From Marinifilum sp. (GTDB lineage: Bacteria; UBA9089; CG2-30-40-21): 53,488 bases of DNA. Of the stretch, positions 1,797-37,687 are shown one piece after another. A program made the translations under genes and the position numbers. The notes beneath the pieces are model-generated. The model was not told the DNA's origin. It was given only the letters and a program-made list of their open reading frames with translations, and searched no databases. The stretch is taken from contig DYDG01000002.1 in assembly GCA_020717845.1 (NCBI GenBank), positions 1-53,488 of the forward strand. Reading direction: 5' to 3'. Numbering within the stretch: the stretch's first letter is position 1; each line of letters opens with the position of its first letter.

Positions 1797-4157
1797 TCAA
1801 TAATATTTCCCATGAAACCATCTTTCTGTCATTCCCCTAATCTGTATACCATTTATAAGCCCTACCCCTGTCTTTTCAGCCTCTATCTTCCCATCCTGAG
1901 TAAAGTCAGAAGTGGTGATACATATTGCCTTATCTTTATCCCTTGCCATCTGATAGCTATGCAATCTCTGGATTGGAGTACTCCCCACATTATGCCTCCA
2001 ATTCTTGCATTGAAATATTACCTTAGAATCGTTTATCTTTGCCTCTATATCTACACCCTTATCGCTGGGACTGCCAGTGATAACAACATCTTTGTAACCT
2101 TCTTTTATTAATACCTCTTTTATGAGTACTTCAAATTCCTTGCCTGAAAGTGTATGTAAGTCAATCTTACCTGTTGCCTTAATTGGTAAAATTATCTTCT
2201 TTTCAATAAATCCCTCATTAGTTTCATCGACATAGTTTTTCAGAACACTTATAATGAAACCCTTATCCTCATTGATGGATTCTATGGCATCCTTATCACC
2301 ATTATCTAAATACAGGCTTAAATTATAAATATAATCGTTATAGTTAAACGCCTCTTTCTTTTTGAGAAGGTCTTCAACTATCCTTGGTGTCCAATCAAGG
2401 ATTCTATTTTGGATGGTTTCTTTTCTGAAGTCCTCAAAGATGGTTATATCTATCTTAGGTAAGAGTGTCTGATTGGGAAGTATATCAAAATACCTCTTGA
2501 TTAATAAATGAATGAGTTTTGCATTTAAGTAGAGTATTTTAAATCCTTGAGATCTTGCTTCGCTGAGAACTATATCTACTGCCTCAAGGAATTTCAATTC
2601 CCTTTTTTCTTTTATGTAGCGTTGCAAGGTGTTATAAACTACTTTATCAAGCCAGACATCACCTTCATAGTAATATTTTTCAGTCTCATCAAGTTTTAGG
2701 AAAAATATAAGGCTATCTGAAGTTATTGACCAATTTGACGACCAGAGGTATCTCATGGAAGGGTCAGCTTTTGCGTATGCAATTCTATGGATTGGCTCAA
2801 ATCCTGCTTTTCGAGCTGAGAGTTTTATCCTGTTTATTATCTCCATCCATCTTTTCTTACCCGCTCTGAAAAATAATACACAATAACCGTAAACCTTTAT
2901 CTTTTTACTGAAATGGTCAAATATCTCATCTAAAGAAGAACAATACTGTTCCCATCTTCTTTTATTATTCCTTTCAGGGCTATCAGTTACAATAACCTCT
3001 TTCTGTTTCATATAGTTTGAGAATTTCCATGTTTCATCACCTGTCCAAAAATACAACCAATCCCTGAAAAGCTGGTTTCTCTCAAGGTAAGGGACAAGTT
3101 CAGAATATGGAGGTTCTGAGAATATCAAATCTACTGAGCCATCAGCTACAGGAATATCATTATAACTCAAGCTGTAAATATTTCTTATAGAATCTGATTT
3201 TAATACTTCTCCAAGCCCCTCATCATCAAACTTAAACTTCATGACTTTGTTAAACCTATCCTCAAAACACAGCCATACATTCCTTTCCATACAGCATTTA
3301 TCAGGGATATGGTACAAATCTTGACTCTTTGCCTTATAATCTGTAATTTTCATTAAATGAAGTGCTGTTACCAATGCCATCTGTAGGAATTCTCTCTCAG
3401 AGGATTTTTCAAGTTCAAGAATTGCCTCTTGAAGCAAACATAAAGCATACTGGTTTCTCTTAGTGAAAAAACAATCGTAATGGTCAGTTTTGCCCGGGGT
3501 AATATTTATTCTCGCATTTATAATTAGATTATGAGAGGGAAATCTATATCCTGAGTTAAGGTTTACAGAATCAATTTTCTTCTTATCAACCTCACTAAAT
3601 TTCTTTTTACGGTTTTCACATTCAGGACATCTGTAAGCCATAACTATATTTTTACCATCATCCATATATAAGTGTGGTGTAGGGTTATAAAATTCCATTG
3701 GATTCAGGTCAAAATATAACCTATCTATGTAGTTTTGTTCCCCACAGCATACGGTAGAATACAAATCCATTATCTTTTGCTTTATTTTACCTTCTAATTC
3801 CTTAAAGAGAGTAATTATCTTCTTTTTATCCAATGACTTTAAAAATGAATCAACAAGATACCATGAATAATTATCAATATCGCCTGCTGTAATCTTACAC
3901 TTATTTCTGATAGCCTCGTAGACAATAATACCTGAACCCATAAATGGGTCGTATAGATGAATTTCGTTTGTTTGACTAATCTTTTCAAAATAGCTTATAA
4001 CTCGGGAAGCGATATCACTTGACTTTCTACCGCTGAATATATATGCGTTTTTACAACAAGCCCATGGGTTAACCTCTGCAGACATTATTAACTCACCAAT
4101 CTCTTTAATTGTAGTTCTTGTTTCCTTTTGTTTCTGTGGGTCTAATAGCCAATACAT
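1797..4157 (-). CDS. DNA methyltransferase fused to Mrr-type restriction nuclease domain
   Basis: A 786-residue protein. The N-terminal half is an amino-methyltransferase: motif I LYDPFMGSG (about 68-76), a CPEC zinc-binding pair near 177, and a catalytic motif IV variant SEPPYS near 345-350. This order (motif I before the PPY motif, with a long insert between) is not the usual beta order. The last 130 residues carry an Mrr_cat fold of the PD-(D/E)XK type: LSGKEFEVLIKEVL, then KGVDIEA and IFQCKNW, giving the D and Q-x-K catalytic elements. One chain may therefore both modify and cleave DNA. Its start overlaps the end of the upstream two-domain methyltransferase by 16 bases, so the two are cotranscribed. 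An alternative start at 4085 has a plausible GGTGAG site. A family name is not assigned. Confidence 0.8.
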   Translation of the reverse strand: MYWLLDPQKQKETRTTIKEIGELIMSAEVNPWACCKNAYIFSGRKSSDIASRVISYFEKISQTNEIHLYDPFMGSGIIVYEAIRNKCKITAGDIDNYSWYLVDSFLKSLDKKKIITLFKELEGKIKQKIMDLYSTVCCGEQNYIDRLYFDLNPMEFYNPTPHLYMDDGKNIVMAYRCPECENRKKKFSEVDKKKIDSVNLNSGYRFPSHNLIINARINITPGKTDHYDCFFTKRNQYALCLLQEAILELEKSSEREFLQMALVTALHLMKITDYKAKSQDLYHIPDKCCMERNVWLCFEDRFNKVMKFKFDDEGLGEVLKSDSIRNIYSLSYNDIPVADGSVDLIFSEPPYSELVPYLERNQLFRDWLYFWTGDETWKFSNYMKQKEVIVTDSPERNNKRRWEQYCSSLDEIFDHFSKKIKVYGYCVLFFRAGKKRWMEIINRIKLSARKAGFEPIHRIAYAKADPSMRYLWSSNWSITSDSLIFFLKLDETEKYYYEGDVWLDKVVYNTLQRYIKEKRELKFLEAVDIVLSEARSQGFKILYLNAKLIHLLIKRYFDILPNQTLLPKIDITIFEDFRKETIQNRILDWTPRIVEDLLKKKEAFNYNDYIYNLSLYLDNGDKDAIESINEDKGFIISVLKNYVDETNEGFIEKKIILPIKATGKIDLHTLSGKEFEVLIKEVLIKEGYKDVVITGSPSDKGVDIEAKINDSKVIFQCKNWRHNVGSTPIQRLHSYQMARDKDKAICITTSDFTQDGKIEAEKTGVGLINGIQIRGMTERWFHGKYY

Positions 4158-6664
4158 TTTTTATAATACTCCTTATCCTTAATCCTCTCCATTGCAATTT
4201 TCAGGTATTCTTCATTCCTTTCTATCCCGGTACATCCTCTTTCATAAATATCTGCTGCCAAGGGAATACTCCCTACCCCCATAAATGGGTCTATTATATT
4301 ATCCTGTGGATTTGTACATCCAAGTATAAGTCTTTTAACCACCTCTAATGGCTTCTGGGCAGGGTGTTTTCCATGTTTTTTTTCTCTTAAGGGTGTCAGG
4401 GGGACATCCCACACATTTCTCATTTGCTTGCCATTATTTAATTCCTTCATTATATTGTAATTAAAAGTCCAATTTTTAGCTTTTTTGGGATTGTTATTCA
4501 CCGCCCATATTATGTATTCTGTGCTTTCGCAAAGCATCCTCTGGGTAATATTAGGGAAGGCATTTCTCTTATACCAGGTGATAGAATTCACAATTCTTAT
4601 CTCTAATTCATTTAAAATCTCGCCTATGGTAAAAATATTATGCATACTTCCAAAGATAATGATATTACCGTTTTCCTTTACCACTCTTGTTATCTTTTGA
4701 ATCCAATCCTTAGTGAACTTCACATAATCTTTATTGGAAAACTTATCCCAATCTTCAGATATCTTTGTGAATTTCTTTTGTTCTGCCCAGTAATCATTTG
4801 ATTTAAGCCAACCAATCTTCTTTTTATGGTCATATCCGGAGATGTTGTATGGTGGGTCAGTGATGCAAGCATCAAATTCATTTTCTCCAAATTCATCCAA
4901 CAAAGACAGACTATCATCAAGATAAAATTCCAAATTCCTATCTTTAAATTTAAGATTACCTTTAGGCTTTAGTGTCCAGGTGTTTTTATCCTTATTGTAG
5001 AGACAAACATCTTCTAAACAACCTGGCAGGTCTCTGTACTTTGTAGAAAGTTTATGAAGTTCTCCTCTCTTATACAACCCTTCAATTAAACCGCTATTAA
5101 CTATCTCGGATGTAGATGCCTCTCCTCCTTTAGCAGATAAAATTTTCTTTACCAAAGTTCTAAGTTCTATCTCTGAATCCCCTGTTTTTTTCTCCTTGGT
5201 TATAGATTTCTTTCTTTTCTGAAATATCAGGAGGCATTCCCCTTTAATTGTAGACTTAGGGCTATTAATTTGCTTATAGGTATACTTATTTCTATGGACA
5301 GGGATTTGCTTAATAAAATCAAACCCGGCATTAGTACAGGCATCAAGGAAATTGCACCAATTCTCAAGTTTAGTATCATTAAACCAGACACAGGCATACT
5401 TATTGGGTTTCAGCACATCATGGATTAATTGAAAGGATTTATGTATATCCTCAAAATATCTTTTGAAGTCTTTGCCTTGTTCCCGATTGCTTACTACAAT
5501 TTCATCCTCTAACACAGCCTTATATCCAGTGAAATATTCCCAGAGTTTTAAGTATTCTGAATAAGCAACGAGGTCCATATAAGGTGGGTCTGTCAGCACA
5601 AAATCAATACTATCAGGAGGGATTTCACCATTACTTATTTTCTGGAATGGTTTATTGAGAATAACCACAGAGTTTGTATTTATATTATTGTGTGTTTTCA
5701 TCCTTATCAATTTATCAAATCTATCTTGAAATAGATACCAGATATTTCTTTCTACTCGTTCTTTAGTTGGTATCCAATAGGGGAACTGAGATTGGGACTT
5801 ACGGTCAGTGAATTTAGCAAGGTGAATACATGAACTCAATACTGCAACAAGGTCTTCTTTTTCCGAGCAGTCTTCAAGTTTAAAGATAATTTCTTTTATC
5901 CTTTTCATGAAATAAAACGCTCTGTTAGGAAAGATATCCAATATATACATTCCATTTTTAATAGCTATCCTCGAATTTGGTAAAAGTTTCATAGATTCAT
6001 CAGGCAATATTTTTAATTCCTCATTAATTGCCATTTGTATATTAACTTCTTCATTGGAGATGTCCCTTTTATAAGTTCTTCCGCAAGAAGGACAATAATA
6101 TTGTAGCATCTTTGGAATATTCACACCATCTTTATAATCATATTCTATTTTTAATAGACTTCCTGAACCTCTACATTCCAAACATAGTACCGAATAATAT
6201 TTTTCAAGTTCATCTTTTAATTCAAATTTGACTTGCGATAGAAAGGTTTGTAGACAAACCAGATCACTTTTTCTCAATATAGTATCAAGGATTTTGACAG
6301 GAAGCTCATTTATTTCCACTCCAATAGGATGTATCCCTTTATTTTGTCTTAATGCCTCAAGAATAGTTGTCCCAGACCCCATAAATGGGTCTAAGAGTGT
6401 ACCTTTATCTGGCAGGAAGGATTTTAATACTAAATCAGTTACATTATGAGGCTTTTTTGACCAGTATAAATGCCAGTCATACATAAACCCCTTTTGGGTA
6501 GGGGTAATTTTAGAAATCTCTTCTTCTAACTTATCAAAATTTATATCCATAGCTTGCTCCGAGTTTGGGATATGAATATTGATATCCTTATTCAAATGGA
6601 AGGATTTATCAAGGCAGTTTGGTTTGTTATGATTCTCAATGGCTAACTCAAGTTGTTGTTCCAT
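4142..6664 (-). CDS. Protein with two DNA methyltransferase domains
   Basis: An 840-residue protein with two distinct amino-methyltransferase domains. Domain 1: motif I LLDPFMGSGTT (about 91-100), a CLEC...CPSC zinc-binding region about 170-210, and motif IV TDPPYMD near 357. Domain 2: motif IV TDPPYNISG near 601 followed by motif I DPFMGVGS near 791, the reverse (beta-class) order. A helical linker rich in lysine joins them at about 500-560. Both are expected to methylate exocyclic amines (N6-adenine or N4-cytosine) with S-adenosylmethionine. Two domains of different order suggest one for each strand of an asymmetric site. It is the first gene after a good minus-strand promoter at 6717-6745 and overlaps the methyltransferase-Mrr gene, so the pair probably forms one restriction-modification system. 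Confidence 0.85.
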   Translation of the reverse strand: MEQQLELAIENHNKPNCLDKSFHLNKDINIHIPNSEQAMDINFDKLEEEISKITPTQKGFMYDWHLYWSKKPHNVTDLVLKSFLPDKGTLLDPFMGSGTTILEALRQNKGIHPIGVEINELPVKILDTILRKSDLVCLQTFLSQVKFELKDELEKYYSVLCLECRGSGSLLKIEYDYKDGVNIPKMLQYYCPSCGRTYKRDISNEEVNIQMAINEELKILPDESMKLLPNSRIAIKNGMYILDIFPNRAFYFMKRIKEIIFKLEDCSEKEDLVAVLSSCIHLAKFTDRKSQSQFPYWIPTKERVERNIWYLFQDRFDKLIRMKTHNNINTNSVVILNKPFQKISNGEIPPDSIDFVLTDPPYMDLVAYSEYLKLWEYFTGYKAVLEDEIVVSNREQGKDFKRYFEDIHKSFQLIHDVLKPNKYACVWFNDTKLENWCNFLDACTNAGFDFIKQIPVHRNKYTYKQINSPKSTIKGECLLIFQKRKKSITKEKKTGDSEIELRTLVKKILSAKGGEASTSEIVNSGLIEGLYKRGELHKLSTKYRDLPGCLEDVCLYNKDKNTWTLKPKGNLKFKDRNLEFYLDDSLSLLDEFGENEFDACITDPPYNISGYDHKKKIGWLKSNDYWAEQKKFTKISEDWDKFSNKDYVKFTKDWIQKITRVVKENGNIIIFGSMHNIFTIGEILNELEIRIVNSITWYKRNAFPNITQRMLCESTEYIIWAVNNNPKKAKNWTFNYNIMKELNNGKQMRNVWDVPLTPLREKKHGKHPAQKPLEVVKRLILGCTNPQDNIIDPFMGVGSIPLAADIYERGCTGIERNEEYLKIAMERIKDKEYYKKCIGY

Positions 6665-6716
6665 GTTAATTCATTCCTTTCTAAATACTTCAATGAATTC
6701 AATTGAACTCATATAT

Positions 6717-6745
6717 AATATACCATATTTTCTAAAAGCTGTCAA
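6717..6745 (-). promoter_or_regulatory. Sigma70-type promoter for the methyltransferase operon
   Basis: On the minus strand there is TTGACA (6745-6740), a 17-base spacer, and TATATT (6722-6717). The predicted transcript would start near 6710, about 45 bases before the ATG of the double methyltransferase at 6664. Confidence 0.75.
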
Positions 6746-6753
6746 GTATTTTT

Positions 6754-7653
6754 TTACAATTCAGGCAAGACAATACTTATCTGTGTTCCGGGAAAGAAAC
6801 TAAGTGCGGATTGTTGAGGTTTTGTGGCATCCCATTGCGGGACTATGCCTACCTTTGCCATTCCTGAGCGAATCATAATTTTACCATTCCATTTTTGGAC
6901 CAATTTTCTGACGCTGGTTAATCCGTGTCCCCTGCCTATGTCATCATATCGAGATGCACTCTCAAATAAGGCAAGCCTGATGGCTACTGAATCAGACCAA
7001 TCCTTACTATACAAATGGCTATATTTTAGCGAAAGAGATTCTTTTACCCCTATTCCTAAATCCATTACAGAAATCTTCACTACCTTTTTACCAAACTTTT
7101 TCCCATAAAAATACTTTTGGATACCCACATAGCCTACATCCTGGCTATGTTCCGGAATATTCTGGCAAACCTCTGATAGGGCAACAATGAAGGAATCAAT
7201 CGCCATATTATCATAATGGAGATGCGTCCGGAGAATGATCTCGGCACCCCTCTTCACCCTATCCACTATCGAATGAATGTCATCCGAACCCTGTATTTTT
7301 GTCATCTCAAGCAAGACATCTGAATGCCTGCTTCGCAAGAATCGTTCCCCTATCTGAACTGTGGAAATATCCATCTCAAAGGGAGGGCTGGCATTCTTGA
7401 AAAAATCCATTCGCTCAAGATATTTTAATACATTCACTGATTCGGGGAAGTTCAGTATTGGAGCAATACCCAGCTTCTTCCTCAAATACCAGCCAAATTC
7501 CAGTAATCCAATCATTCCATAGGGATCGATAAACTCAATCTTTTCTAAGTTGATGATAACTTCGTTCCCTATCATGTCCCGATTAGATTGTAGCAATAGA
7601 TGCTCAAATGTATTTTCGTCTAAGTATGCAGGTGAGGATAAATTACATGGCAT
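6754..7653 (-). CDS. STAS-like domain fused to GHKL ATPase
   Basis: A 299-residue soluble protein. Residues about 1-95 look like a STAS/anti-anti-sigma domain (VIINLEKIEFIDPYGMIGLL). Residues about 130-299 are a GHKL ATPase: N-box ALSEVCQNIPEHS, G1-box DLGIGV, and G2-box GRGHGLTSV. A separate STAS antagonist and serine kinase normally form partner-switching pairs; here both are in one chain, as in other STAS-HATPase fusions of unknown role. The catalytic asparagine and both glycine boxes are present, so ATP binding is expected. The start has a strong AGGAGGAGACATT site before ATG. It stands alone between the methyltransferase promoter and the nucleotide-sugar dehydrogenase. The target is unknown. 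Confidence 0.75.
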   Translation of the reverse strand: MPCNLSSPAYLDENTFEHLLLQSNRDMIGNEVIINLEKIEFIDPYGMIGLLEFGWYLRKKLGIAPILNFPESVNVLKYLERMDFFKNASPPFEMDISTVQIGERFLRSRHSDVLLEMTKIQGSDDIHSIVDRVKRGAEIILRTHLHYDNMAIDSFIVALSEVCQNIPEHSQDVGYVGIQKYFYGKKFGKKVVKISVMDLGIGVKESLSLKYSHLYSKDWSDSVAIRLALFESASRYDDIGRGHGLTSVRKLVQKWNGKIMIRSGMAKVGIVPQWDATKPQQSALSFFPGTQISIVLPEL

Positions 7654-34598: not shown

Positions 34599-35411
34599 TT
34601 ACTTCTCCACAATATCATAATTTGCAATCAACAATTCTTTCCCCTTTTGTGCTGTTTGCTGTTTATAATTGTTCATTCCGTATTGCAATTCCCACTCAAC
34701 CTGATAAAAGTCTCTAAATAATGTTCGGATATATTCATTATTATCATAGGTTATTAACCATTTATGTTTACATTGCTTGAGATTTTCAAAAAATATTTTG
34801 TGATCAAACCCTACATGAAGACACCCCTTTTTCCCATATAACCTTGACTGAGTAGTTGAATAATATGGTGGGTCCAAAAAAATAAACACATTTTCTCCAT
34901 TTCTATATAAAAGCTCAGTATAATCTTTTGGGCTGAATTCTATATGTTTAACAATATTGTAAGCGTTTTCTAATCGCTCAATTGAAGACAGTGTAAATCG
35001 TTTTTCAAATGCTTGTTCTGAATATCCTCCACTATCTACAACACCAGAAAATGTAATTCTGTTTAGTACAAAAAAATCAATTGCTCGCTGAAAATCTGAT
35101 AATGCCTGCTTTCGTTTAGCAATAAGTTCTTGAAATAATTCTCTTCCATTGACATATTCTTTTTTTACTCGGAGGATTTCTTTGATTAAATTATCCTTAT
35201 TTGATTGTAATTCCTTCCAAAAACAATATAAGTCATAATTTGCATCACTTGCATAATACCGAGTAGATGATTTTTTTTGAACACAATAAAATGAAAATGA
35301 CCCTCCTCCAAAAAACGGTTCTCTCAACTCTTCATATTGAGGAATGAAAGCAGAAAGATAGCCTACTGCCCTGGATTTTCCTCCTGGATAACGCAAAGGA
35401 CTCTTAATCAT
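34599..35411 (-). CDS. D12-class DNA adenine N6-methyltransferase
   Basis: About 270 residues of the Dam/DpnM (D12) family. Motif X/I: SPLRYPGGKSRAVGYL and REPFFGGGSFSF bind S-adenosylmethionine; the catalytic motif is FIFLDPPYYST; YDNNEYI follows. It methylates adenine N6 in a short site; the recognition sequence is not readable. The ATG at 35411 overlaps the stop of the nuclease gene by 8 bases (ATGATTAA) and has AGAGGAAAAAAG just before it; the longer GTG start at 35426 is less likely. Together with the nuclease and a second methyltransferase this resembles DpnII/MboI-like operons, which carry two methylases. Confidence 0.92.
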   Translation of the reverse strand: MIKSPLRYPGGKSRAVGYLSAFIPQYEELREPFFGGGSFSFYCVQKKSSTRYYASDANYDLYCFWKELQSNKDNLIKEILRVKKEYVNGRELFQELIAKRKQALSDFQRAIDFFVLNRITFSGVVDSGGYSEQAFEKRFTLSSIERLENAYNIVKHIEFSPKDYTELLYRNGENVFIFLDPPYYSTTQSRLYGKKGCLHVGFDHKIFFENLKQCKHKWLITYDNNEYIRTLFRDFYQVEWELQYGMNNYKQQTAQKGKELLIANYDIVEK

Positions 35412-36555
35412 CTTTTTTCCTCTCACCGTATTCTATTACGACCTCAAAGTTGTTTGCTCTTGCTTCCTTGAACAAGGTATTAACAAATTCTTCTTTATTT
35501 TTCCTGAAACGGTTCTCATGGAAGAATGTTTTAATCTCACTTTCGTTCATATTTGTTGTAATTTTGCCCTGTATTTTTTCGGATGTTAGCCTGAGTACAG
35601 GAATAAAATTGACAAGCGTTTTTGAGTTAATATCTGTTTCTTCATAAAGTTTATCTATATTTGAAAAAAGCATCATCTTGATAAGCCCATCTTTTATATC
35701 ATTTTCTCCAGGTAAAATTGACTTTTTGGAATGTTTGCTTTCGATAAGTTCATACCTGTTGTCATGAATAATCACATCATCAACTGTTAGAAAATATTTA
35801 CCGCCCAAATAATTCTCTATTTCGATAGGTGTTTTTACTCCTACGCTTAATACCTCTTTTGGTTGAGTCGTCCCTATTTCTCTTTTCTGTGCCTGAGCAG
35901 ATTTGAGTCTTGAAAAGGCTAAAAAACTCTCTTGACTTATAATGATACGTTCTCTGAAGGCTTCTATCCCTGCTTCATTATGAAGCTTAACGCCTGTCTT
36001 ATTTGAAATTAGTCGATAACTGAGAATGACTTTTTCCATAAGACCATCTAATTTTTCAGGGCTCAATTGATTTAAGTTCCAGTGTAGAGCAGATGAATGA
36101 TAGTTGGATAACTCCTTTAATTGAGCTTTTACGAAATCACCATCCAACTGTTGTTTTGTTATTCTATTTGGTTTTTGAGCGTCTCGATAATTCTTTTGGG
36201 CATCCATATAATAAGCAAGGATGACATATACATTTAACAAGCTCATTAATTGGACAGTGTCCCATTGGAGATAGTCTATGTTTTGAGAATCTGCTCCTTC
36301 ATCTTTTACAATAGGTATAACCGTAATGGTTTTTCCTCCACAAGTAGATAAAGTGTCATACACACTGGCGAATGGATATGTTCTTGTTCTTTTCGGACCA
36401 GTCCATTTACTGACTGCATAAATTGTATCGTTATCCTTAATACAACATCTTGATTGCCAAGCATTCACATCAGTATCAAATAATACGGTTAACAAAGGGC
36501 TTTTAAGAAAACTTTCGTACCTCATATTCATTATTTTGCCAATTAATTTGGACAT
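35404..36555 (-). CDS. Probable type II restriction endonuclease
   Basis: A 383-residue protein between two methyltransferase genes. No family name is recognised. A PD-(D/E)XK-like catalytic motif is visible: FLTVDDVIIHDNRYELIESK (about 254-273), where an aspartate pair precedes E-x-K on a beta strand, followed by a serine-rich turn and the helix NDIKDGLIKMMLF. The N-terminal 240 residues are mainly helical and could form the recognition domain. A GGGGG ribosome site lies eight bases upstream of ATG. The stop overlaps the D12 methylase start, and the RadC-methyltransferase gene ends 16 bases upstream. Position and motif support a restriction nuclease; specificity unknown. Confidence 0.75.
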   Translation of the reverse strand: MSKLIGKIMNMRYESFLKSPLLTVLFDTDVNAWQSRCCIKDNDTIYAVSKWTGPKRTRTYPFASVYDTLSTCGGKTITVIPIVKDEGADSQNIDYLQWDTVQLMSLLNVYVILAYYMDAQKNYRDAQKPNRITKQQLDGDFVKAQLKELSNYHSSALHWNLNQLSPEKLDGLMEKVILSYRLISNKTGVKLHNEAGIEAFRERIIISQESFLAFSRLKSAQAQKREIGTTQPKEVLSVGVKTPIEIENYLGGKYFLTVDDVIIHDNRYELIESKHSKKSILPGENDIKDGLIKMMLFSNIDKLYEETDINSKTLVNFIPVLRLTSEKIQGKITTNMNESEIKTFFHENRFRKNKEEFVNTLFKEARANNFEVVIEYGERKKDD

Positions 36556-36571
36556 ATTTACAACCCCCTGT

Positions 36572-37687
36572 TTATTTAGTTATTTGGTTTAATCGTTCAA
36601 TAGCATATTGAACATACTTTTCCTGAGTATCAATCCCAATATGTTTCCGTCCTAATTTCTCAGCAACTATATTTGTTTGTCCGCTTCCAGCAAATATATC
36701 GATAACAGTATCGTCTTTATATGAATAAAACTGAATAATTCTTTTGGCTAATTCTTCTGGAAAAGGACAGGGATGAAGATTTTGTTGGGGAGCAACCGGG
36801 GGAATCTTCCAGACATTTTTGCTCAGTTCTCCTTGATAATCTCTCAAATCAATCTTATTTGTTTGCTTATCTTCACGTGAACGAAAGTAGTAGATATTAT
36901 TTTCTTCCTTTTTACCTGCTGGCTTTTGGAAAACCAATACATATTCAGCAACCAAACTTGGATAATAATAACCTGGATATGGGTGTTGCATTAACACACC
37001 GCTTCTCTTATCTTTTGCAATCTCTTTTTCCCAAATAATATCTTCCTTGAACTGCCAGCCTATTTCCTCCATCCATCCTGTAAAATGAAAAGGTAATGGT
37101 ACTCGGATACCGTTCCATCCTACTGGAGAAATATTCACAACATTATATCCTCCTGGCTTAATAATACGATATAATTCCTTAAATCGATCAGTCAAAAATG
37201 TTCGATAAAAGTCGTAGGAAACTTCTTTGCGTGTCCAATACTCGATTTTTCCCTCAAGTTTTTGGATATGTTCCTCATAATTGATAGCGTTATGATATGG
37301 AGGAGAAGTAAAGGCAAGGATAATAGAATCATCAGCAATAGATTTCATAGCTTCCAGACAGTCGCCTTGAATAATTTCTCCTCGTCCAATTTCATGAACT
37401 CTGATCTTCTCTTGTGTCCATTTAAATCGTCTCCCTAATTCTAAGGCTGAAATAATCTGTAACGCTTTCGTGGTTCCAATCCCTGGGAATTCGCTTAATT
37501 TTTCTATAGAAATCGAATTGTTTAGATTTGTGCGGATATATTCAACCAGTTCTTTGCTTAAATCAAAGACATTTTTCCCTTTAGAACCATGCCCCAAAAT
37601 AATAGCAATCAAATCTTCAGTACTTATTTGTGTAGGATTTTTAATTTCAAGTAATTTTTCTCTTGGTTTTTTAGATTCGGTATTCAT
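36572..37687 (-). CDS. RadC-type helix-hairpin-helix domain fused to DNA methyltransferase
   Basis: A 371-residue fusion. Residues about 6-90 match the N-terminal helix-hairpin-helix domain of RadC/UPF0758 proteins: PREKLLE, TEDLIAIILGHGSKGKNV, and LSEFPGIGTTKALQI. The C-terminal JAB/MPN protease domain of RadC is absent. Instead residues about 98-371 form a beta-class amino-methyltransferase: GEIIQGDCLEAM, catalytic TSPPYHN (126-133), and motif I DIFAGSGQTN (about 329-338). SPPY points to N4-cytosine, or possibly N6-adenine. The HhH domain probably helps DNA binding. First gene of the restriction-modification operon, with AAGGTACG before ATG. The fusion is uncommon; the boundary (about residue 90) is clean. 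Confidence 0.85.
   Translation of the reverse strand: MNTESKKPREKLLEIKNPTQISTEDLIAIILGHGSKGKNVFDLSKELVEYIRTNLNNSISIEKLSEFPGIGTTKALQIISALELGRRFKWTQEKIRVHEIGRGEIIQGDCLEAMKSIADDSIILAFTSPPYHNAINYEEHIQKLEGKIEYWTRKEVSYDFYRTFLTDRFKELYRIIKPGGYNVVNISPVGWNGIRVPLPFHFTGWMEEIGWQFKEDIIWEKEIAKDKRSGVLMQHPYPGYYYPSLVAEYVLVFQKPAGKKEENNIYYFRSREDKQTNKIDLRDYQGELSKNVWKIPPVAPQQNLHPCPFPEELAKRIIQFYSYKDDTVIDIFAGSGQTNIVAEKLGRKHIGIDTQEKYVQYAIERLNQITK

What the first reader, a model, noticed from the sequence alone, without database searches (positions are those of the whole stretch)
1797..6664. Two-gene modification/restriction pair with three methyltransferase domains and an Mrr nuclease tail
The upstream protein has two methyltransferase domains in opposite motif order; the downstream one has a methyltransferase domain like domain 1 of its partner, fused to Mrr_cat. 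Both have cysteine-pair zinc sites in the same place. The genes overlap and share a promoter. This does not match a textbook type I-IV layout.
Basis: partly seen in the sequence, partly recalled or inferred. Interest (0 to 1): 0.65.

Follow-up and report, generated by a model that had tools for sequence, protein, structure and literature searches.

The report
Restriction enzyme guided by decayed methyltransferase
Two overlapping bacterial genes look like a DNA restriction-modification pair in which the cutting protein carries a copy of its partner's DNA-methylating domain, with an altered catalytic motif, apparently used to find or check the target rather than to methylate it.

Summary
Window 4142-6664(-) encodes M: MT1, a DPFMGSG...DPPY methyltransferase (MTase), plus a C-terminal CcrM-like beta MTase. 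Window 1797-4157(-) encodes R: a paralogue of MT1 fused to an Mrr nuclease. They overlap by 16 nt behind a strong conserved promoter. I found 20 distinct R proteins; the pair is adjacent in 18 of 18 loci where this could be seen. R domains and MT1 domains form two clades with matched branching (one ancient duplication, co-inherited since). Nuclease residues D703/Q716/K718 are kept in 18 of 18 R proteins covering them. Motif IV is DPPY in 18 of 18 MT1 domains, but in R it is DFPY (16), EPPY (2, here and sister) or DPPY (2): two separate changes. In most relatives the second MTase is a D12 domain; here a beta MTase replaces it. Best reading: a Type II-like R-M system in which M marks both strands and R uses a largely non-catalytic MTase fold as guide and methylation sensor. 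BpuSI and MhoVII are close precedents, so this is a new variant of a known kind. HNH and RhuM are not part of it. Activity, specificity and cofactor use are untested.

The parts
4142..6664 (-). M: 840-aa double methyltransferase
5195..6547 (-). MT1 domain of M (residues 40-490): motif I, Cys-containing insert, motif IV
6371..6391 (-). M motif I DPFMGSG (residues 92-98)
6083..6184 (-). M cysteine pairs C161/C164 and C191/C194 (putative zinc site)
   Evidence: zinc not testable
5579..5590 (-). M motif IV DPPY (residues 359-362), 18 of 18 relatives DPPY
4187..4873 (-). C-terminal beta-class (CcrM/DpnA-like) MTase domain of M (residues 598-826)
4142..4157 (-). 16-nt overlap of the end of M and the start of R
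1797..4157 (-). R: 786-aa MTase-like + Mrr protein
2685..4094 (-). MTase-like domain of R (residues 22-491), paralogue of MT1
3930..3950 (-). R motif I DPFMGSG (residues 70-76)
3618..3749 (-). R cysteine pairs C137/C138 and C177/C180 (putative zinc site)
   Evidence: zinc not testable
3105..3116 (-). R motif IV EPPY (residues 348-351); DFPY in 16 and DPPY in 2 of 20 R proteins
1836..2156 (-). Mrr_cat nuclease domain of R (residues 668-774), with D703, Q716, K718
6717..6745 (-). Promoter TTGACA-17-TATATT in front of M
6693..6712 (-). 20-bp palindrome between promoter and M (one mismatched pair here; perfect in three relatives)

Best explanation
A Type II-like restriction-modification system. 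M carries two active-looking amino-MTase domains (MT1 and a beta MTase) that most likely methylate adenines on the two strands of one, probably asymmetric, site. R arose when the MT1 domain was duplicated and joined to an Mrr-type PD-(D/E)XK nuclease. Its MTase-like domain most likely binds, and perhaps flips, the target adenine to read the site and check whether it is methylated; in most members it no longer methylates. The nuclease then cuts unmethylated foreign DNA. Shown here: domains, homology, linkage, co-inheritance, conserved nuclease residues, altered motif IV, purifying selection. Inferred: activity, strand assignment, same site for M and R, sensing by the MTase-like domain.
For: Linkage: M next to R in 18 of 18 loci where the contig reaches far enough (L028 and L033 run off their contigs); in 8 of 8 genomes searched whole, R and MT1 are the only two family members and lie side by side. 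Co-inheritance: distance correlation R versus M 0.98 over 17 pairs and 0.92 over the 14 Firmicutes-type pairs, permutation p 0.0001; one R clade 100/99 and one M clade 98/94. Nuclease residues 18 of 18; motif IV DPPY in 2 of 20 R and 18 of 18 MT1, by two changes inside R and none inside M. In the relative G006, M is intact while R has lost residues 66-547 and carries stops: the order of loss expected of an R-M pair. A homologous HTH gene lies directly upstream of R in 14 of 17 Firmicutes-type loci; four were tested with Pfam and all four are HTH, as in controller-regulated Type II systems (recalled). dN/dS against the sister 0.18 (R MTase-like), 0.14 (Mrr), 0.13 (MT1), 0.17 (beta).
Against: No activity, motif or cofactor data. 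Two R proteins (L025, L089) keep DPPY, and DFPY may still be catalytic: rRNA MTases of the KsgA/Erm kind use N-[IL]-P-Y (recalled). R keeps the SAM loop in most members (motif I G76 in 19 of 20), but the scan that found most of them favoured DPFMGS, so that count is biased. R shows no excess similarity to its own M over other M proteins in the Cys-containing insert (p 0.42-0.95), so a shared specificity is not supported by covariation. The deletion in G006 rests on one draft genome.
Confidence: 0.58

Rival explanations
1. R is a true third MTase: a Type IIG-like enzyme that both methylates and cuts, with M as a supplementary double MTase (the BpuSI arrangement).
For: R keeps motif I and the fold; L025 and L089 keep DPPY; BpuSI has two extra MTases; the MTase-like domain is under purifying selection.
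Against: Motif IV changed in 18 of 20 R and in 0 of 18 MT1; the window's EPPY recalls the EPPL of the inactive METTL14 (PMC5023411 passages).
Confidence: 0.22
2. R and MT1 form a heterodimer in which R is the reading half of the methyltransferase as well (METTL3-METTL14-like or EcoP15I-like division of labour), so that R is needed for methylation.
For: Paralogous domains co-inherited with matched trees; division of labour is known in EcoP15I Mod2 (PMC4490356 passages) and METTL3-METTL14.
Against: In G006 M is kept, with dN/dS 0.14 against the window's M, while R is destroyed. No complex could be predicted here.
Confidence: 0.12
3. R is a modification-dependent (Type IV-like) nuclease that happens to travel with an MTase.
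For: Mrr and MspJI are listed among the modification-dependent enzymes (PMC4081073 passage); the model's nuclease resembles MspJI and AF1548.
Against: R is tied to its M in 18 of 18 testable loci and co-inherited; an enzyme cutting methylated sites would attack a host that M methylates unless the sites differ.
Confidence: 0.08

Closest known systems
Type IIC/IIG enzyme BpuSI with two accompanying MTases
   Same: Nuclease and MTase domain in one chain plus two further MTases (PMC4081073 passages).
   Different: Type IIG has a gamma-class MTase domain; here the order is motif I, Cys-containing insert, motif IV, the nuclease is C-terminal Mrr, the domain is a paralogue of the partner's MT1, and motif IV is mostly altered.
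MhoVII (and FokI) Type II systems with a fused double MTase
   Same: One chain with two 6mA MTases of different class (YhdJ-like and D12 in MhoVII), each for one strand of a non-palindromic site (PMC12898733 abstract and passages). The same two broad classes (D12 and beta) alternate as second MTase in this family.
   Different: Here MT1 is a further, Cys-containing class, and R contains an MTase-like domain.
DpnII/LlaDCHI type systems
   Same: The beta MTase of M is 39% identical to the second MTase on plasmid pSRQ700, where it accompanies a D12-type adenine methylase and a nuclease; that this is LlaDCHI is recalled.
   Different: No MT1, no MTase-like nuclease.
METTL3-METTL14
   Same: Active MTase with a paralogue whose motif IV is degenerate (DPPW versus EPPL, PMC5023411 passages).
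   Different: RNA enzyme, no nuclease, unrelated subfamily.
Mrr and MspJI nucleases
   Same: Same nuclease fold and D-QxK residues.
   Different: Those act on modified DNA without a linked MTase (partly recalled).

Membership tests
Type IIG/IIC R-M enzyme | Nuclease and MTase domain in one chain | tested here: met
Type IIG/IIC R-M enzyme | gamma-class MTase domain | tested here: not met
   Motif I at 70-76, about 215-residue insert, motif IV at 348-351: alpha-like order; the class orders are recalled
Type IIG/IIC R-M enzyme | R itself methylates | tested here: inconclusive
   Motif IV altered in 18 of 20; no assay
Type IIG/IIC R-M enzyme | Cleavage stimulated by or dependent on SAM | not testable with these tools
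   no biochemistry
Type II system with fused double MTase (FokI, MhoVII) | Two amino-MTase domains in one modification protein | tested here: met
Type II system with fused double MTase (FokI, MhoVII) | Each domain methylates one strand of an asymmetric site | not testable with these tools
   no methylome
Type II system with fused double MTase (FokI, MhoVII) | Nuclease without MTase domain (recalled) | tested here: not met
   R has an MTase-like domain
Type IV (Mrr-like, modification-dependent) | Mrr_cat nuclease | tested here: met
Type IV (Mrr-like, modification-dependent) | No cognate MTase | tested here: not met
   M adjacent in 18 of 18 testable loci
Type I or Type III | Helicase motor in the restriction subunit | tested here: not met
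   No helicase domain found in R: Pfam shows none; the PADLOC hit to ZorD covers only its Mrr-like nuclease end
BREX / PglX | PglZ and other BREX genes beside the MTase | tested here: not met
   PglX-type hit only at domain level; the four neighbour proteins tested are RhuM, HNH, HATPase and PIN

The most novel reading that the evidence does not exclude
A family of restriction systems in which the cutting subunit was made from the modifying subunit: a duplicated methyltransferase domain, with its catalytic motif changed at least twice independently, became the DNA-reading and methylation-checking module of an Mrr nuclease, while the second methyltransferase of the partner could be exchanged (D12 for a CcrM-like enzyme) without breaking the pair.
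Probability: 0.45. Interest if true: 0.65.

Novelty: new variant of a known kind. Interest (0 to 1): 0.5.

Why it matters
If right, it shows how a restriction specificity can be born from its own modification enzyme, which would keep cutting and protection matched from the start, and it gives a bacterial DNA counterpart of the METTL3-METTL14 active/degenerate pair with a built-in nuclease. Natural variants with DPPY, DFPY and EPPY make the step from active to degenerate directly testable. Named hosts such as Pseudobacteroides cellulosolvens, Youngiibacter fragilis and Veillonella montpellierensis carry it.

Tried and rejected
HNH (1467-1727) and RhuM (43-1053) as parts of the system: rejected, no tblastn hit in 23 related loci; in the sister genome a different HNH gene occupies the place.

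Concerted evolution or shared-specificity signal between R and its own M: not found (13 and 11 non-redundant pairs). Scan of viral contigs with the three-row R alignment: 600 candidates, no relative. A third scan of viral contigs returned the same three contigs as the second. Scan with the M alignment: 80 of 537 loci kept; a blastp of the domain queries showed only beta-MTase hits plus short motif matches, no MT1-beta fusion. Plasmid collection: no full-length R. Phage collection: one full-length R, MT836948. PDB sequence search with R: none. Foldseek on the whole R model: one weak hit at E <= 0.001, MspJI; the VIA second look covered both domains. The M model is poor beyond residue about 570, so nothing is concluded from its C-terminal half.

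Literature: seven searches, read as listings, showed no description of an MTase-like + Mrr restriction protein with a double-MTase partner; this covers open-licence papers only, not REBASE.

A first promoter pattern had a wrong spacer and matched nothing, not even the window; corrected. A notebook entry overstated the palindrome (28 instead of 20 bp) and the pattern (35 instead of 27 specified bases); corrected.

Rows left out of counts: L038 (near copy of L026), L024 (same contig as L019), L088 and L111 (the L025 sequence again), L110 and L112 (same contigs as L087 and L089), L039 (fragmentary M without R). L034 R is split into two frames and L033 R is cut by the contig end; both are counted for motif IV, not for the nuclease.

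Full report
What is there. On the minus strand, M (4142-6664, 840 aa) is followed with a 16-nt overlap by R (1797-4157, 786 aa). M holds MT1 (motif I at 92-98, four cysteines, motif IV DPPY at 359-362) and a C-terminal beta-class MTase (Pfam N6_N4_Mtase 598-826, E 2.5e-60; CcrM E 5e-41 and DpnA E 2e-26 in the PDB). R holds a domain homologous to MT1 (30% identity, E 2e-28) and an Mrr_cat nuclease (668-774, E 3e-22). A structure model of R (24 sequences, mean pLDDT 83) places a class I MTase fold at about 22-491, with an inserted stretch between roughly 107 and 324, and an Mrr-like nuclease at 671-784. A promoter-like site with 11 of 12 consensus matches ends 53 nt before M.

Relatives. R-like proteins came from a genome-contig scan (57 loci, of which 16 hold R: 15 over most of its length and L033 in part), viral contigs (3 loci), the phage collection (1 record) and whole genomes. 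After removing copies, 20 distinct R proteins were used. They occur in the window's genus, in Bacillota, in Gastranaerophilales and on viral contigs. The family is rare: 2 of 391 genomes of one class, one of these being the centre chosen because it has it. M is adjacent to R in 18 of 18 loci where the contig reaches far enough. In 8 of 8 genomes searched whole, R and its MT1 are the only two members and lie side by side.

Two arrangements. In the window, its sister (L019) and the viral contig L089, M precedes R in tandem; in the other 15 loci R and M converge. A homologous HTH gene lies directly upstream of R in 14 of 17 Firmicutes-type loci; four tested by Pfam are HTH. The second MTase is a D12 domain fused to the N-terminus of MT1 in 11 of 18 loci, a separate D12 gene in 5, and the C-terminal beta MTase in 2 (window and sister; the relative G006, whose R is broken, has it too). 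L089, the tandem relative, has D12, so the beta MTase most likely replaced D12 in the window's lineage (inference).

Origin and decay. On a maximum-likelihood tree the MTase-like domains of R form one group (100/99) and the MT1 domains another (98/94). Distances among R proteins and among M proteins agree (0.98 for 17 pairs; 0.92 for the 14 Firmicutes-type pairs; permutation p 0.0001). So one old duplication produced R's domain and the pair has travelled together. Long branches (L089, the outgroup rows) make the deepest order unsure. Motif IV is DPPY in 18 of 18 MT1 domains. In R it is DFPY in 16, EPPY in 2 and DPPY in 2 of 20, which on the tree means two changes within R and none within M; a more distant relative, L083, also has DFPY. 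Nuclease residues D703, Q716 and K718 are present in 18 of 18 R proteins that cover them. Against the sister genome, dN/dS is 0.18 for R's MTase-like domain, 0.14 for its nuclease, 0.13 for MT1 and 0.17 for the beta domain: the altered domain is not drifting. EPPY resembles the EPPL of METTL14, shown to be inactive (PMC5023411, passages). DFPY is less clear, since some rRNA MTases use N-[IL]-P-Y (recalled).

Loss in a relative. G006 keeps an intact M, while R has lost residues 66-547 and contains stop codons. M without R is tolerated, as expected of an R-M pair, and M there cannot depend on R. This rests on one draft genome.

How it most likely works. M methylates both strands of one site; R reads the same site with its MTase-derived domain, senses the unmethylated base and cuts through the Mrr domain. 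All of these activities are inferred from the domains, not shown. R shows no excess likeness to its own M over others in the inserted stretch, so equal specificity is not supported by covariation, though it would also look like this if the whole family read one site.

Comparison. BpuSI (Type IIC/IIG plus two MTases; PMC4081073, passages) and MhoVII (fused double 6mA MTase, GATG/CATC, nuclease cuts unmethylated DNA; PMC12898733, abstract and passages) are the nearest precedents. Type IIG is described there as having a gamma-class MTase domain, which R does not have. EcoP15I shows division of labour between a reading and a methylating Mod subunit (PMC4490356, passages). No named system was matched in PADLOC-DB or NCBIfam.

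Surroundings. The pair lies in a slot bounded by a HATPase gene (6754-7653) and, in relatives, by a STAS-like DUF4325 gene. Five of 19 genomes of the phylum have both genes, and the same five have exactly one copy of the same promoter with palindrome right after the HATPase gene, with no mismatch in 27 specified bases; the other 14 genomes and the reversed control have none. Behind that promoter the cargo differs: this pair (G000, G002), M with a broken R (G006), a different R-M-like set (G005) and a HsdM-like gene (G007). In G000 the slot appears split between contigs, with the DUF4325 gene at the edge of C66.

Noticed in passing
window 6693-6745(-); L105-L109: A fixed promoter (TTGACA-17-TATATT) with a 20-bp palindrome follows the HATPase gene in 5 of 5 genomes that have that gene and stands before varying R-M-like cargo; the cargo appears to be exchanged behind a constant regulatory start.
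   Followed up: partly
window 6754-7653(-); L019:1864-2448(-): A protein with a STAS-like N-terminus (by eye) and a HATPase domain, and a DUF4325 protein with a possible winged-helix C-terminus (by eye), flank the slot and could regulate its cargo.
   Followed up: partly
window 6664(-) start of M; L102:7861(-); L022:4769(-): Otherwise different cargo MTases share the N-terminal peptide M[EP]QQLxL; it resembles the beta-clamp-binding motif QLxLF (recalled), or is a remnant of cargo exchange.
   Followed up: no
L016:15-857, L027:721-1722, L028:6456-7460, L029:2855-3859, L032:6477-7448: Five loci carry an extra gene upstream of the HTH gene, all related to the L016 copy; that copy matches the PvuII endonuclease family above its cut-off, the L032 copy below it, the other three not at all. 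These systems may have a second nuclease.
   Followed up: partly
window 34599-37687(-): A second probable R-M set: a D12 MTase, a 383-aa protein without Pfam hit, and an N6_N4 MTase fused to an UPF0758 (RadC-type) N-terminal domain.
   Followed up: no
L022 (G007:C94): A related 639-aa MTase, a 512-aa protein without Pfam hit and a D12 MTase next to the DUF4325 gene: possibly another system of this kind with a different nuclease.
   Followed up: no
L016 (MT836948), L087, L089: The pair also occurs on contigs classed as viral, so it may travel on prophages.
   Followed up: no
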